A stretch of 32,202 nucleotides of DNA, taken from positions 1-32,202 of the forward strand of contig JAUXSD010000198.1 of assembly GCA_030681525.1 (NCBI GenBank), in the 5' to 3' direction. Source of the DNA: Solirubrobacteraceae bacterium (GTDB lineage: Bacteria; Actinomycetota; Thermoleophilia; Solirubrobacterales; Solirubrobacteraceae). The position numbers and the translations under genes were made by a program. The notes beneath the pieces were generated by a model. It was not told where the DNA came from and ran no database searches. It worked only from the letters and a program-made list of their open reading frames with translations. Below are positions 8,472 to 28,400 of this stretch, in pieces (the first letter of the stretch is position 1; the number at the start of each line of letters is the position of its first letter).

Positions 8472-8557
8472 GACTCCGCGCAGCCGCACGCCGACGCGCG
8501 ATGACCTTCACGGCTGCTCCGGCCGAGCTGTGCACTTCGTGGCGACGTCTGTCGGCC
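8472..8557. other. Intergenic flank before element A
   Basis: 86 bp between the phosphatase stop and element A. I see no gene, strong hairpin or promoter here, and it has no counterpart beside the second element copy. Confidence 0.5.
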
Positions 8558-8758
8558 GTCGGCGAACGGCATCGTTGAGGGGGTGACAGTGGATGGTCGC
8601 GCCGGCGGGCGGTCCGGGGCCGGCGGGGCGGGCGGGAGGCGGAGATGGCACCGATTCCCCGTATGCCGGGCATTTCGTGCCATCGGCCGCCTGAACCGGC
8701 CCTGCCGTGAGCGGGTGTGTCGGATTGGCCTCGCGGGCCGAGGCTCAATCGACTCACC
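8558..8758 (+). repeat. Structured dispersed element, copy A (possible ncRNA)
   Basis: Non-coding element homologous to 28195-28393. Positions 8558-8684 align without gaps to 28195-28321, 98 of 127 bases identical by hand count; the last part shares the 17-mer CCTCGCGGGCCGAGGCT (8729-8745). Three stems can form in the same places in both copies: P1 8569-8592 (GCATCGTT/GACAGTGG, weak in this copy, with U-G and U-A pairs), P2 8644-8684 (GATGGCAC/GTGCCATC) and P3 8714-8758 (GGTGTGTCGGATTGGCCTCG with its complement, loop CGGGC). A small frame from GTG 8583 can be aligned between copies, but differences are spread evenly over the three codon positions, so it is unlikely to be coding. Both copies lie between converging genes. 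Confidence 0.8.
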
Positions 8759-8828
8759 ATCAACGCCGGGCCCGGCGCAAACGCCGACATGACCTCCGAC
8801 TCGCACCCTCAGAGAAGCAGTTTTTTCG
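8759..8828. other. Intergenic flank after element A
   Basis: Contains the perfect 14-nt palindrome CGCCGGGCCCGGCG (8764-8777) and a run of six T on the plus strand (8821-8826). No convincing stem immediately precedes the T-run, so a terminator for plus-strand transcripts is possible but unproven. Confidence 0.35.
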
Positions 8829-17631: not shown

Positions 17632-18222
17632 TCAGCTCCTGCGTAGGCCGGCGGAGACGACCGCGAGCAGGATCGCGTCGTCGTCGCCGGGGTTCTCGAA
17701 GTGGTGGGGCAGATCGGCGTCGAAGGTCACACAGTCGCCCTCGGCGAGCTCGTGGCGCTCGCCGTCGATGCGCAGCACGACGCGGCCGGACTGCACGAGC
17801 GCCGTCTCACGGCTGCCGGGCTCGTGCATCGGCGGGTCGCCGGGGCCGCCGGTGCTGGCGCGCGGGGCGAGCACGTGGCGTGACAACTCGGCGCGCTGGC
17901 CGGGCAGCGGCGGGGTGAGGATCTCGGCGCTGTGGCCGGAGGCGGGGTCGCTGTTGCCGGGCCGGCGCTCGCCGGTGCGCACGATCGCGACCTGACCGGC
18001 CTCGTCGAGGCGCAGCAGCTGCGACAGCCGCAGGTCCAGGCCCCGGGCGATCCGCTCGGCGACGGCGAGCGTCGGGCTCGTCTCGCCGCGCTCGACCTGG
18101 CTGAGCATCGGCGCGCTGACGCCGCTGCGCTGCGCGAGATCGCGCAGGCTGAGCTCCATCGCGTCGCGCAGGGCGCGGATGCGCCGGCCGATCGGGTTCG
18201 GGTGCTCGATCGTGGTCGCCAT
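17632..18222 (-). CDS. XRE-family regulator with C-terminal cupin domain
   Basis: 196-aa transcription factor. Residues 12-70 form a helix-turn-helix of the lambda-repressor/XRE type (IRALRDAMELSLRDLAQRSG, SAPMLSQVERGETSP). Residues about 110-190 form a small cupin (VLRIDGERHELAEGDCVTF, DLPHHFENPGDDDAI), which in this family usually senses a small ligand. It heads the operon with leuC, leuD and a Tam-like gene. A perfect palindrome (18229-18246) overlaps its -10 hexamer TAACGT, 9 nt before the ATG, so autoregulation is likely. The ligand may be a branched-chain intermediate, by context only. Confidence 0.93.
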   Translation of the reverse strand: MATTIEHPNPIGRRIRALRDAMELSLRDLAQRSGVSAPMLSQVERGETSPTLAVAERIARGLDLRLSQLLRLDEAGQVAIVRTGERRPGNSDPASGHSAEILTPPLPGQRAELSRHVLAPRASTGGPGDPPMHEPGSRETALVQSGRVVLRIDGERHELAEGDCVTFDADLPHHFENPGDDDAILLAVVSAGLRRS

Positions 18223-18246: not shown

Positions 18247-18294
18247 CGACGCGTGGGCGGCGGCTCGCCCGCTCGGTGCGCTCTCGGGTCGAGC

Positions 18295-18316
18295 TGTTCA
18301 TGTCCCCACATGAACA
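18295..18316. promoter_or_regulatory. 22-bp perfect palindrome upstream of the patatin gene
   Basis: Arms TGTTCATGT and ACATGAACA (9 bp each) around CCCC. It lies between the XRE promoter and the patatin gene. It includes an ATG at 18300 that would be an alternative patatin start; if the GTG at 18474 is used, this is a free-standing operator-like site about 140 bp upstream of the candidate -10. Confidence 0.6.
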
Positions 18317-18473
18317 AACCGACCAGCCGTTCGAGTCGCCTCCGCCGGCCCCGGCCGAAGACGTGGTCGCCCCCACCACGCCCACCCCCTCAGAGATGCC
18401 GTTCCGGCGCGAAGCGCCGACGACCCATCCGTACGCGGCGGGCCGCGCCTCGCCGGGGGTACGCTCAACACTC

Positions 18474-26551: not shown

Positions 26552-28192
26552 ATGACCGATCTCGCCGATCGCCTCGTCATCAAGGACGGCAACGTGTTCG
26601 CCGTCATCCCCCGTGAGGGCGGGTGGAGCGGGGCCGACGGCGTCTGGATGGACGACTGCCGCCACGTCAGCCGCCACGAGCTGCGCATCGGCGGCGCGCC
26701 GCCGCGGCCGCTGCACGCCGACGACGACGCCGGCCACACGTCCGTGCACCGCTACGCGGGCGGGGCGCGGCTCGAGCGCCGCGTGCACGCCGACGGCACG
26801 ATGGTCGAGCGGATCCTCGCGCCGGGCACGATCGAGCTGACCGCCGAGGGCGACTTCGTCACGATCTTCGGGCTGCGCGGGATCGTGCCGCGCACGCCGC
26901 GCGAGACCCACCGCACCGAGCTGCGCCGCCACGCGATGCCGGGCGAGCTGCGCGTCGAGTACCGCTTCTCGCCCGCGCCGCAGGCGCCGGCGGCGGCCGC
27001 CTTCGCGCCGCCGCGGGTCGAGTGCGACGACGAGCGCTTCGCGGCCGTCCTGCAGCGCGCCTTCGCGGACATGCGGATGCTGCTGTCGTGGCTCGACGGC
27101 GAGCCGTACTTCGCGGCCGGGGTGCCCTGGTACGCGACGCTGTTCGGCCGCGACAGCCTCATCGCGGCGCTGCAGCTCCTGGCGTTCGCGCCCGCCGTGG
27201 CGGCGGGGACGCTGCGCCTGCTGGCCGGCCGGATCGGGCAGGAGGACGACCCGGCGCGCGAGGAGGAGCCGGGCAAGATCCTGCACGAGCTGCGACCGGG
27301 CGAGACCGGCACGCCGCTGGCGCGCTACTACGGCAGCGTCGACGCCACGCCGCTGTTCCTGCTCGCGCTGCAGGCCACCGGGGACGCGGGGCTGCAGGCG
27401 CAGCTCGCGCCGGCCGCCGACGCAGCGCGCCGGTGGATCGCGCGCCGCGACCCGCTGACCTACACCGCCGGCGCCCTGCGCCACCAGGGCTGGAAGGACT
27501 CCGAGGACGGCGTGCCGGCCCCGCATCCCGTGGCGCTCATCGAGCCGCAGGCCTACGCCGGGCGCAGCGTCGAGCCCTTCTGGCTGGAGCAGCGCGGCTT
27601 CTACGCGATGGCGCTGGGCACCGATGTGCTGGCCTCCAACCAGGGACATGTGCTCTGGACGAGTCCGTCCGGCCGCCTGCCCGCCCTGCGGGCGCGGGCG
27701 ATCCGCGACGCGTTGATGGGCCCCGCGATGTTCTCGGGCTGGGGGATCCGCACGCTGGCCGCCGACGAGCCGCTCTACGACCCGCTGAGCTACCACCGCG
27801 GCTCGGTCTGGCCGCACGACACCGCGCTCATCGCGGCCGGTCTTCACCGTCACGGCTTCGCCGAGGACTACCTCACGCTCTTCGACGCGCTCGTCGACGC
27901 CGCGGCGCTCGCGCCGGGCCGGCGCCTGCCGGAGCTGTTCGGCGGCCAGGCGCGGGTGGCGGACGAGCCGTTCGTGGCCTACCCCGTGGCCTGCCGTCCG
28001 CAGGCCTGGGCGGCGGGCGCGATCCCGTTCCTGCTGGCCGAGGGGCTGGGACTCAACGCCTGCGGCGATTGGGCCGGCGCGGCCGTCCTGCCGAGCGGCG
28101 TGAGCGAGCTGCGCATCGACGGCGTCGTGCACGCGAGCCGGACGGCGCGCGGCGCGGTACGGGTGCGACGGCTCGCGCCCGCCCGAGGTTGA
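26552..28192 (+). CDS. Glycogen debranching enzyme / amylo-alpha-1,6-glucosidase family
   Basis: 546-aa protein. The N-terminal beta domain (about 1-150) carries the GDE_N pattern (FAVIPREGGWSGADGVWMDDCRHVSRHEL), followed by an (alpha/alpha)6 catalytic domain with WYATLFGRDSLIAALQ, HQGWKDSEDG, YHRGSVWPHDTALIAAGL and RLPELFGG. Such enzymes hydrolyse alpha-1,6 or related glucosidic bonds in storage glucans. Compared with the usual near-700-aa members from memory, it lacks about 30 residues between QAYA and EPFW and shorter pieces nearby, so it is a compact form. The start ATG at 26552 has no clear signal. Element B begins 3 nt after its stop. Confidence 0.9.
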   Translation: MTDLADRLVIKDGNVFAVIPREGGWSGADGVWMDDCRHVSRHELRIGGAPPRPLHADDDAGHTSVHRYAGGARLERRVHADGTMVERILAPGTIELTAEGDFVTIFGLRGIVPRTPRETHRTELRRHAMPGELRVEYRFSPAPQAPAAAAFAPPRVECDDERFAAVLQRAFADMRMLLSWLDGEPYFAAGVPWYATLFGRDSLIAALQLLAFAPAVAAGTLRLLAGRIGQEDDPAREEEPGKILHELRPGETGTPLARYYGSVDATPLFLLALQATGDAGLQAQLAPAADAARRWIARRDPLTYTAGALRHQGWKDSEDGVPAPHPVALIEPQAYAGRSVEPFWLEQRGFYAMALGTDVLASNQGHVLWTSPSGRLPALRARAIRDALMGPAMFSGWGIRTLAADEPLYDPLSYHRGSVWPHDTALIAAGLHRHGFAEDYLTLFDALVDAAALAPGRRLPELFGGQARVADEPFVAYPVACRPQAWAAGAIPFLLAEGLGLNACGDWAGAAVLPSGVSELRIDGVVHASRTARGAVRVRRLAPARG

Positions 28193-28194
28193 GC

Positions 28195-28393
28195 GTCGGC
28201 GAACGCCACCGCCTAGGGGGTGGCGGTGGACGGTCGCGTCAGCGGGCGGGCCGGGGCCGGCGTGGCGGAAGGCAGGCGGCGATGGCGGATTTACCCCTCA
28301 GAGCGGGTATTTCGCGCCATCCTCCGCGCGATCTCGCCGTGCTTCGACGGCGGCGTGGCGGATAACCCTCGCGGGCCGAGGCTGATCCGCCAC
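28195..28393 (+). repeat. Structured dispersed element, copy B (possible ncRNA)
   Basis: Homolog of 8558-8758, same orientation, also between converging genes. Stems here are stronger: P1 28206-28229 CCACCGCC/GGCGGTGG (8 bp), P2 28281-28321 GATGGCG/CGCCATC closing a 41-nt hairpin of the same length as in copy A, and P3 28355-28393 GTGGCGGAT/ATCCGCCAC (9 bp) around CCTCG/CGAGG with loop CGGGC. Compensatory changes versus copy A: A-T to G-C in the seventh pair of P2, and U-A to C-G plus U-G to C-G in P1. U-G pairs in copy A suggest the plus strand is the RNA strand. A long plus frame begins here, but the sequence is not coding-like. Confidence 0.8.
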
Positions 28394-28400
28394 ACCCATC

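What the first reader, a model, noticed from the sequence alone, without database searches (positions are those of the whole stretch)
8558..8758. Pair of homologous structured non-coding elements 19.6 kb apart (copy A)
8558-8684 aligns gap-free with 28195-28321; 98 of 127 bases match by hand count. The segments then diverge but share a 17-mer inside the last hairpin. Sequence between the stem arms varies while arm positions and the 41-nt P2 hairpin length are kept. I do not recognise the family. It may be a multi-copy structured ncRNA or a REP/MITE-like repeat of this lineage.
Basis: seen in the sequence. Interest (0 to 1): 0.85.

Follow-up and report, generated by a model that had tools for sequence, protein, structure and literature searches.

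The report
Dispersed mosaic palindromic repeats between genes
The two matching stretches are copies of an interspersed repeat, built from a pair of inverted arms around differing hairpins, that has multiplied in the gaps between genes of this bacterium; it looks like mobile-type repeat DNA rather than a functional RNA.

Summary
In detail: 98 of 127 bases match gap-free; the next best place in the window gives 61. A and B are two of about 80 loci in this genome. Copy A runs past the finding's end to about 8824, and a third, unnoticed copy lies at 18275-18418. A full element is a pair of inward-facing inverted arms (22 of 22 neighbouring arm pairs at 20 bits or more; 25 of 27 at any score) around one to three hairpins of several unlike types. 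Types i and iii also occur without arms and in other species of the genus.

The whole-element ncRNA reading fails three tests: arms of one element are no more complementary to each other than to other arms; sense-strand stems show no excess of G.U over A.C; Rfam has no match. In 5 of 5 congeners that keep A's neighbour genes the site lacks the element. Elements favour convergent gaps, with arms a median 45.5 nt from gene 3' ends. No Y1 (RAYT-class) transposase was found in seven genus genomes.

Best reading: a MITE/BIME/BOX-like, lineage-specific interspersed repeat with palindromic cargo and an unidentified mover. New variant of a known kind.

The parts
8532..8543 (+). Copy A, small foot hairpin GCACTTCGTGGC outside the left arm
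   Evidence: position; other copies have feet of this and other kinds
8553..8635 (+). Copy A, left arm (core GAACGGCATCGTTGAGGG; CCGGGGCCGGCG at 8614-8625)
   Evidence: R1 match, 52.3 bits, E 2.5e-13 in own genome; the four window arms were among the 25 training sequences of R1
8644..8684 (.).
8711..8761 (.). Copy A, palindromic module i
   Evidence: R2 match, 58.9 bits, E 1.2e-9; a training sequence of R2
8755..8823 (-). Copy A, right arm, inverted relative to the left one; beyond the finding's end
   Evidence: R1 match, 53.2 bits, E 1.3e-13
28187..28270 (+). Copy B, left arm; begins at the end of the upstream gene (gene end 28192)
   Evidence: R1 match, 41.7 bits, E 4.9e-10
28281..28321 (.). 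Copy B, palindromic module iv (aligned with that of A)
   Evidence: not picked up by the hairpin finder
28349..28399 (.). Copy B, palindromic module i; no right arm recognised after it
   Evidence: R2 match, 64.6 bits, E 5.6e-11; no R1 match there
18336..18416 (-). Third copy C, single arm, in the divergent gap between a minus-strand gene (17632-18222; looks like an XRE-type regulator by reading, no family call) and a patatin gene (plus)
   Evidence: R1 match, 38.8 bits, E 3.9e-9; patatin by Pfam
18284..18327 (.). Copy C, palindromic module iii
   Evidence: R3 match, 57.8 bits, E 5.5e-11; a training sequence of R3
18406..18418 (.). Copy C, foot hairpin GGCGCTTCGCGCC beside the arm core
18275..18287 (+). 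Copy C, possible remnant of the other foot (GGTGCGCTCTCGG)
   Evidence: position; the reading as a remnant is inference

Best explanation
A lineage-specific, non-autonomous interspersed repeat that works as DNA. Two copies of a conserved arm of about 60-85 bp in inverted orientation (shown) enclose one to three palindromes of about 40-70 bp of several unlike types (shown; eight by my sorting, some perhaps related). The arms are conserved in sequence but not in mutual pairing (shown), as expected of terminal inverted repeats read one by one by a protein (inferred). The palindromes are REP-like repeats in their own right: types i and iii also occur without arms and in other species of the genus (shown). 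The composite entered intergenic gaps in this lineage; at copy A the five congeners that keep the two neighbour genes lack it (shown at this one locus). It may spread as units with a set internal order (suggested by few cases). The enzyme that moved it is unknown. Elements accumulate just behind genes and between convergent genes, most likely because insertion is tolerated there (inferred). A side effect as a two-way transcription or RNase barrier is possible and untested.
For: About 80 loci in one genome. Neighbouring arms face inwards in 22 of 22 pairs at 20 bits or more and in 25 of 27 at any score. Shared arms with unlike hairpins inside. Element absent at A in 5 of 5 congeners with both neighbours (no R1, R2 or R3 match in those gaps). 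R2 and R3 match across the genus. Arms of one element are not matched to each other: 34.74 against 35.13 in shuffles, 3783 of 5000 shuffles as high, 21 elements. No wobble asymmetry: 74 G.U to 65 A.C, p 0.50, against 19 to 2 in 16S. Convergent gaps over-represented: 26 of 69 against 36 of 232 gaps without an element, p 1.5e-4. 62 arm ends face a gene's 3' end at a median 45.5 nt.
Against: No transposase, target-site duplication or exact insertion boundary was found; the congener gaps are too diverged to fix the ends. The absence test worked at one locus only. At rplQ-truA the gap is not empty in two of three congeners read: G001 has 388 bp with a type-i hairpin and other palindromes, G003 251 bp with a different palindrome, G006 115 bp, so a hairpin could be selected for there. 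Stems of types i and ii keep pairing through double changes, so something preserves palindromy. 56 of 80 elements show one arm only. Arm ends facing a gene's 5' end are not rare (30, median 100 nt).
Confidence: 0.7

Rival explanations
1. Selected 3'-end elements: the hairpins stop transcription from one or both sides, or protect mRNA 3' ends, and are kept for it.
For: Closeness to gene ends and convergent bias; congeners G001 and G003 carry other palindromes in the rplQ-truA gap; stems of types i and ii keep pairing.
Against: 0 of 76 flanks of 38 type-i hairpins hold TTTT. 12 of 69 elements with clear context are in divergent gaps, as frequent as among gaps without elements (43 of 232, p 1.0; but see the full report for a comparison that points the other way). 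No G.U excess in gene direction. No element at A in 5 of 5 congeners.
Confidence: 0.17
2. DNA-level function as sites for a nucleoid protein, gyrase or another chromosome-organising protein, as proposed for BIMEs.
For: Sequence-conserved arms without pairing constraint; symmetric palindromes; genus-wide type i.
Against: Strong arm matches are nearly confined to this genome, odd for a housekeeping site; no binding data.
Confidence: 0.08
3. A family of structured non-coding RNAs with the whole 200-290 nt element as the functional RNA.
For: Low folding energy of A (z -3.59, 0 of 200 shuffles) and B (z -2.49, 2 of 200); pairing kept in the short hairpins.
Against: No Rfam match; no arm compensation; wobble symmetry; inner hairpins of unlike types.
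Confidence: 0.05

Closest known systems
BOX elements of Streptococcus pneumoniae (PMC3049150, passages read)
   Same: Composite repeat with fixed ends and a variable middle; intergenic; over-represented between convergent genes; hairpin-forming; often clustered with other repeats.
   Different: BOX ends A and C differ and the middle is an array of boxB; here both ends are the same arm inverted and the middle holds unlike palindromes, two of which also occur without arms. No IS partner found here, few families tested.
REP, BIME and REPIN (PMC3733652, passages; PMC3116915 and PMC2817692, search listings only)
   Same: Dispersed extragenic palindromes, mosaic arrays in alternating orientation, strong copy-number differences between species.
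   Different: No GTAG tag and no clear CGTC tag beside type i, and no Y1/RAYT match in 7 of 7 genus genomes.
ERIC and Correia/NEMIS repeats (PMC2229807, passages)
   Same: 100-200 bp hairpin-forming repeats between genes; the larger Correia element differs from the smaller by a 50-bp internal stretch.
   Different: Those repeats are described as mostly A+T-rich with TA ends and target duplications; here arm matches of 20 bits or more have GC 0.59-0.83 and no duplication was seen.

Membership tests
REP (GTAG or CGTC superfamily) | Unpaired GTAG or CGTC at one end of the stem | tested here: not met
   76 flanks of 38 type-i hairpins: GTAG 0, CTAC 3, CGTC 6, GACG 8, so most flanks lack both; no expectation was computed, other types not tested. 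Feature from PMC3733652 passages.
REP (GTAG superfamily) | RAYT, a Y1-type tyrosine transposase, in the genome | tested here: not met
   PF01797: 0 of 7 genus genomes at E <= 0.1, controls ring in 8 of 14; own genome 0. Genomes are 70-98% complete. REPs without RAYTs are on record, so this is not exclusive.
BIME | Mosaic of units in alternating orientation, extragenic, many copies | tested here: met
   Arms inverted; 4 of 80 elements fall in a predicted gene. Met as a plan only; no homology to E. coli BIMEs claimed or tested.
MITE | Terminal inverted repeats | tested here: met
   22 of 22 pairs at 20 bits or more, 25 of 27 at any score; but 56 of 80 elements have one recognised arm
MITE | Target-site duplication | tested here: inconclusive
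   Congener gaps at A too diverged to place boundaries
MITE | Parent transposon with the same ends | tested here: inconclusive
   Two stretches between arms about 1 and 3 kb apart hold a DUF899 gene, and IMPDH- and GMP-synthase-type genes, no transposase; others not examined; apart from PF01797 no transposase family was searched
BOX | boxA and boxC ends with boxB array | tested here: not met
   Same arm at both ends, unlike middle hairpins; sequence likeness to BOX itself was not tested
Known structured ncRNA | Match to an Rfam family | tested here: not met
   Window at gathering scores: only 16S; eight loci at E <= 1: one sub-threshold BjrC68 match, L137 166-220, outside the element
Structured ncRNA | Compensatory pairing | tested here: inconclusive
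   Arms: none. Hairpins: covariation score reached by 0 of 500 shuffles for types i and ii and 29 of 500 for iii; number of pairs with double changes reached by 38, 69 and 314 of 500. The tool warns that relatedness alone can exceed the shuffles.
Intrinsic terminator | T-run after the stem | tested here: not met
   0 of 76 flanks with TTTT, type-i sites only; copy A has a T-run at its right arm (8817-8822) not beside a hairpin module

The most novel reading that the evidence does not exclude
A repeat system, probably actinobacterial, in which one kind of arm pair carries different palindromes as cargo and spreads without any Y1 (RAYT-type) transposase, so that an unknown recombinase builds and moves composite palindromes.
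Probability: 0.25. Interest if true: 0.7.

Novelty: new variant of a known kind. Interest (0 to 1): 0.42.

Why it matters
GTAG-type REP repeats are explained by RAYT transposases (PMC3733652, passages). A genus with tens of dispersed palindromes in several genomes and no match to that transposase class in seven genomes is a good place to look for another mover. The elements also sit at gene ends, may influence termination, and could break assemblies of such genomes.

Tried and rejected
Rejected or weakened: whole-element sense-strand ncRNA; RAYT-driven REPs; canonical terminators; a parent transposon in two stretches between facing arms.

Led nowhere: a strict DNA pattern in genome contigs gave 0. 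The looser one gave 15 loci from many phyla; R1 scores 13.1-21.4 bits there, so I take most as chance. Of the 15 I folded only L093, a Solirubrobacteraceae MAG (20.2 bits), where I see by eye a long palindrome with a mirrored end; L096 and L097 score slightly higher and were not looked at. Two viral-contig loci score 15.5 and 16.4 bits and show no such architecture by eye. Of 27 of 101 genomes with a match, I take only G000 and G002 (L063, E 4.1e-12) as sure; L090 of G003 (E 0.0016) looks arm-like by eye. A strict hairpin census found too little. In the looser one, gaps of G000 hold 0.65 hairpins per kb against 0.187 in genes, but those of G001 0.11 against 0.184, which speaks against a genus-wide excess. 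Locus B's neighbours gave no long congener match, so there was no absence test there. At L121 the flanking genes are not adjacent in the congener matches. A tRNA control for the wobble test (9 tRNAs, G.U 11, A.C 0) was not used, because the program marks mismatches separately.

Rows dropped: 110 of the 116 matches were retyped for clustering; six of the weakest were left out while one of 13 bits beside a strong arm was kept. 83 loci became 80 because three gave no row. One search used 104 of the 117 rows; the 13 left out by eye include weak same-direction neighbours at L111 (16.4 bits), L139 (16.2) and L140 (13.1) and one facing match at L114 (12.7), while a facing match of 13.6 bits at L124 was kept. 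One search recounts the pairs from the rows without that choice. Three of 24 two-arm elements (L124, L125, L143) were skipped because the core motif was not found. One search left out L172, L179 and the window. The G000 type-i sites were picked mostly because no arm lay near, so the 15 of 34 is the fair figure.

Arm-foot class against cargo: not significant (mutual information 0.209, 374 of 5000 shuffles as high, n 45). The two arms of an element share a foot class in 2 of 18 (4.8 expected, no p-value computed), a hint of distinct left and right ends.

Full report
What was claimed and what is there. The two segments match at 98 of 127 positions without gaps; the next best placement of A in the window reaches 61, with a mean of 38.2 and sd 5.18. 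Genome-wide, A finds B at E 1.5e-30 and a place on contig C9 at 1.6e-24, then many partial ones. Both lie between convergent genes: a histidine-phosphatase gene and a DegT-type aminotransferase gene for A, a glycogen-debranching-type gene and a short-chain dehydrogenase gene for B.

Anatomy. An arm alignment of 25 copies, four of them from the window, gave a sequence-only model, R1. In the own genome it lists 116 matches at E <= 1; E-values are rough and training copies match by construction. 110 of these rows cluster into 83 loci; 80 elements were analysed, 24 with two arms and 56 with one. Neighbouring arms less than 450 bp apart face inwards in 22 of 22 pairs at 20 bits or more and in 25 of 27 at any score; the two exceptions are abutting same-direction partial matches. 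Whether some types are distantly related (iii and iiib, iv and vii) was not tested. In A and B the order is arm, iv, i; A ends with the inverted arm at about 8824, B has no second arm. A third copy in the window has one arm and type iii, in a divergent gap.

Feet and order. Outside the arm core there is a small hairpin of several kinds, such as GCGCTGTCGCGC, GGCGCTTCGCGCC and GCACTTCGTGGC. The two arms of one element share the foot class in 2 of 18 cases, 4.8 expected. Read from the arm inwards, ii precedes i in five elements (L130, L131, L135, L143, L149), with one exception (L181: iv, i, ii); iiib precedes iii in three two-arm elements (L158, L165, L182). This hints at composites with distinct ends that spread as units; the numbers are small.

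Lineage. In 101 genomes R1 is strong only in the own genome and at one locus of G002; in a genus search with looser filters the six congeners give 2 to 9 mostly weak matches each, against 109. The hairpins are wider: R2 (type i) gives 73 matches in G000, 68 in G005, 26 in G006, 19 in G003, 13 in G001, 5 in G002 and 0 in G004; R3 (type iii) gives 66, 10, 13, 3, 12, 3 and 0 in the same order. Palindromes match on both strands, so sites are about half of these numbers, and any strong hairpin gains score from these models. Of 32 genomes outside the genus, 7 have R2 matches (best E 5.1e-5) and 3 have R3 matches (best 2.2e-4). In 20 stretches of G005 with 22 type-i sites no R1 match at E <= 0.1 was found. 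So type i is a repeat in its own right.

Sites without the element. The phosphatase and DegT genes are neighbours in G001, G002, G003, G005 and G006, with 1 to 94 bp between the matched stretches, against a 357-bp gap here; G004, an incomplete genome, has no such pair. None of R1, R2 or R3 matches in those gaps. At rplQ-truA three congeners could be read: G001 has 388 bp with a type-i hairpin and other palindromes, G003 251 bp with another palindrome, G006 115 bp. Gaps can thus be filled by unlike palindromes in different species.

RNA or DNA? Type i and ii stems vary with pairing kept (covariation score reached by 0 of 500 shuffles), type iii only marginally (29 of 500); counts of pairs with double changes are less striking (38, 69 and 314 of 500). 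Left and right arms of one element are no better matched than arms of different elements (34.74 against 35.13, 21 elements). If a sense-strand RNA were selected, G.U should outnumber A.C when stems between tandem genes are read in gene direction. The counts are 74 and 65 (p 0.50), against 19 and 2 in the first half or so of the 16S rRNA (p 0.0015 for the difference). The hairpin finder penalises G.U less than A.C on the stored strand, which should not hide a G.U excess. Rfam has no match.

Placement. Gene calls come from my own codon-usage script, checked against the window only. Of 80 elements 31 are in tandem, 26 in convergent and 12 in divergent gaps, 7 at contig edges and 4 inside a predicted gene. 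Against the 232 element-free gaps of any length in the same stretches (36 convergent, 43 divergent), convergent is enriched (p 1.5e-4) and divergent is not depleted (p 1.0). Against only the 48 element-free gaps of at least 100 bp (5 convergent, 22 tandem, 21 divergent), convergent is enriched (p 0.0012) and divergent depleted (p 0.0031). Because the element itself lengthens its gap I prefer the first comparison; the second favours the terminator rival. 62 arm ends face a gene's 3' end at a median of 45.5 nt and 30 face a 5' end at a median of 100.

Mover. Pfam PF01797 (Y1_Tnp, the class of RAYT and IS200/IS605 transposases; class recalled) has no match in seven genus genomes at E <= 0.1, while controls ring in 8 of 14. 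Between arms on C9 lie IMPDH- and GMP-synthase-type genes and on C5 a DUF899 gene. No other transposase family was searched, so the mover is unknown, not absent.

Known kinds. BOX elements are the closest in plan and share the convergent bias, which their authors take as possible evidence of mobile, parasitic repeats tolerated downstream of genes (PMC3049150, passages). [quoted passage not shown] the word 'actinobacter' occurs 0 times in its main text). ERIC and Correia repeats are hairpin-forming MITEs (PMC2229807, passages). A survey of 40 genomes found 92 families of stem-loop repeats (PMC2267715, abstract). A search for papers with Solirubrobacter, palindromic and intergenic gave 0, and the listings of two wider searches showed none on this lineage (20 of 62 and 15 of 146 papers listed). 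Only open-licence papers were searched, so absence from print is not shown.

Noticed in passing
window 18275-18418: Third copy of the element, in a divergent gap between a regulator-like gene and a patatin gene; not listed in the finding.
   Followed up: yes
L235 1850-2235 and L233 about 1247-1500 (G001 and G003, rplQ-truA gap): Other species of the genus fill the same gap with different nested palindromes; the G003 one also resembles a stretch of G000 (L267 15279-15343, 80% over 66 bases).
   Followed up: partly
L093 4474-4850: Solirubrobacteraceae MAG contig with an arm-like start and, by eye, a mirrored end around other palindromes: perhaps the same architecture in a relative.
   Followed up: partly
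L191, L192, L193 (phosphatase-DegT gap of G001, G002, G005): By eye, a shared AGCTTGCG ... CAGGGCGAA stretch after the phosphatase gene in three congeners, perhaps another repeat.
   Followed up: no
own-genome contigs C9, C104, C96, C300, C313, C241, C35: Several elements lie within about 300 bases of a contig end, as if the palindromes broke the assembly.
   Followed up: no
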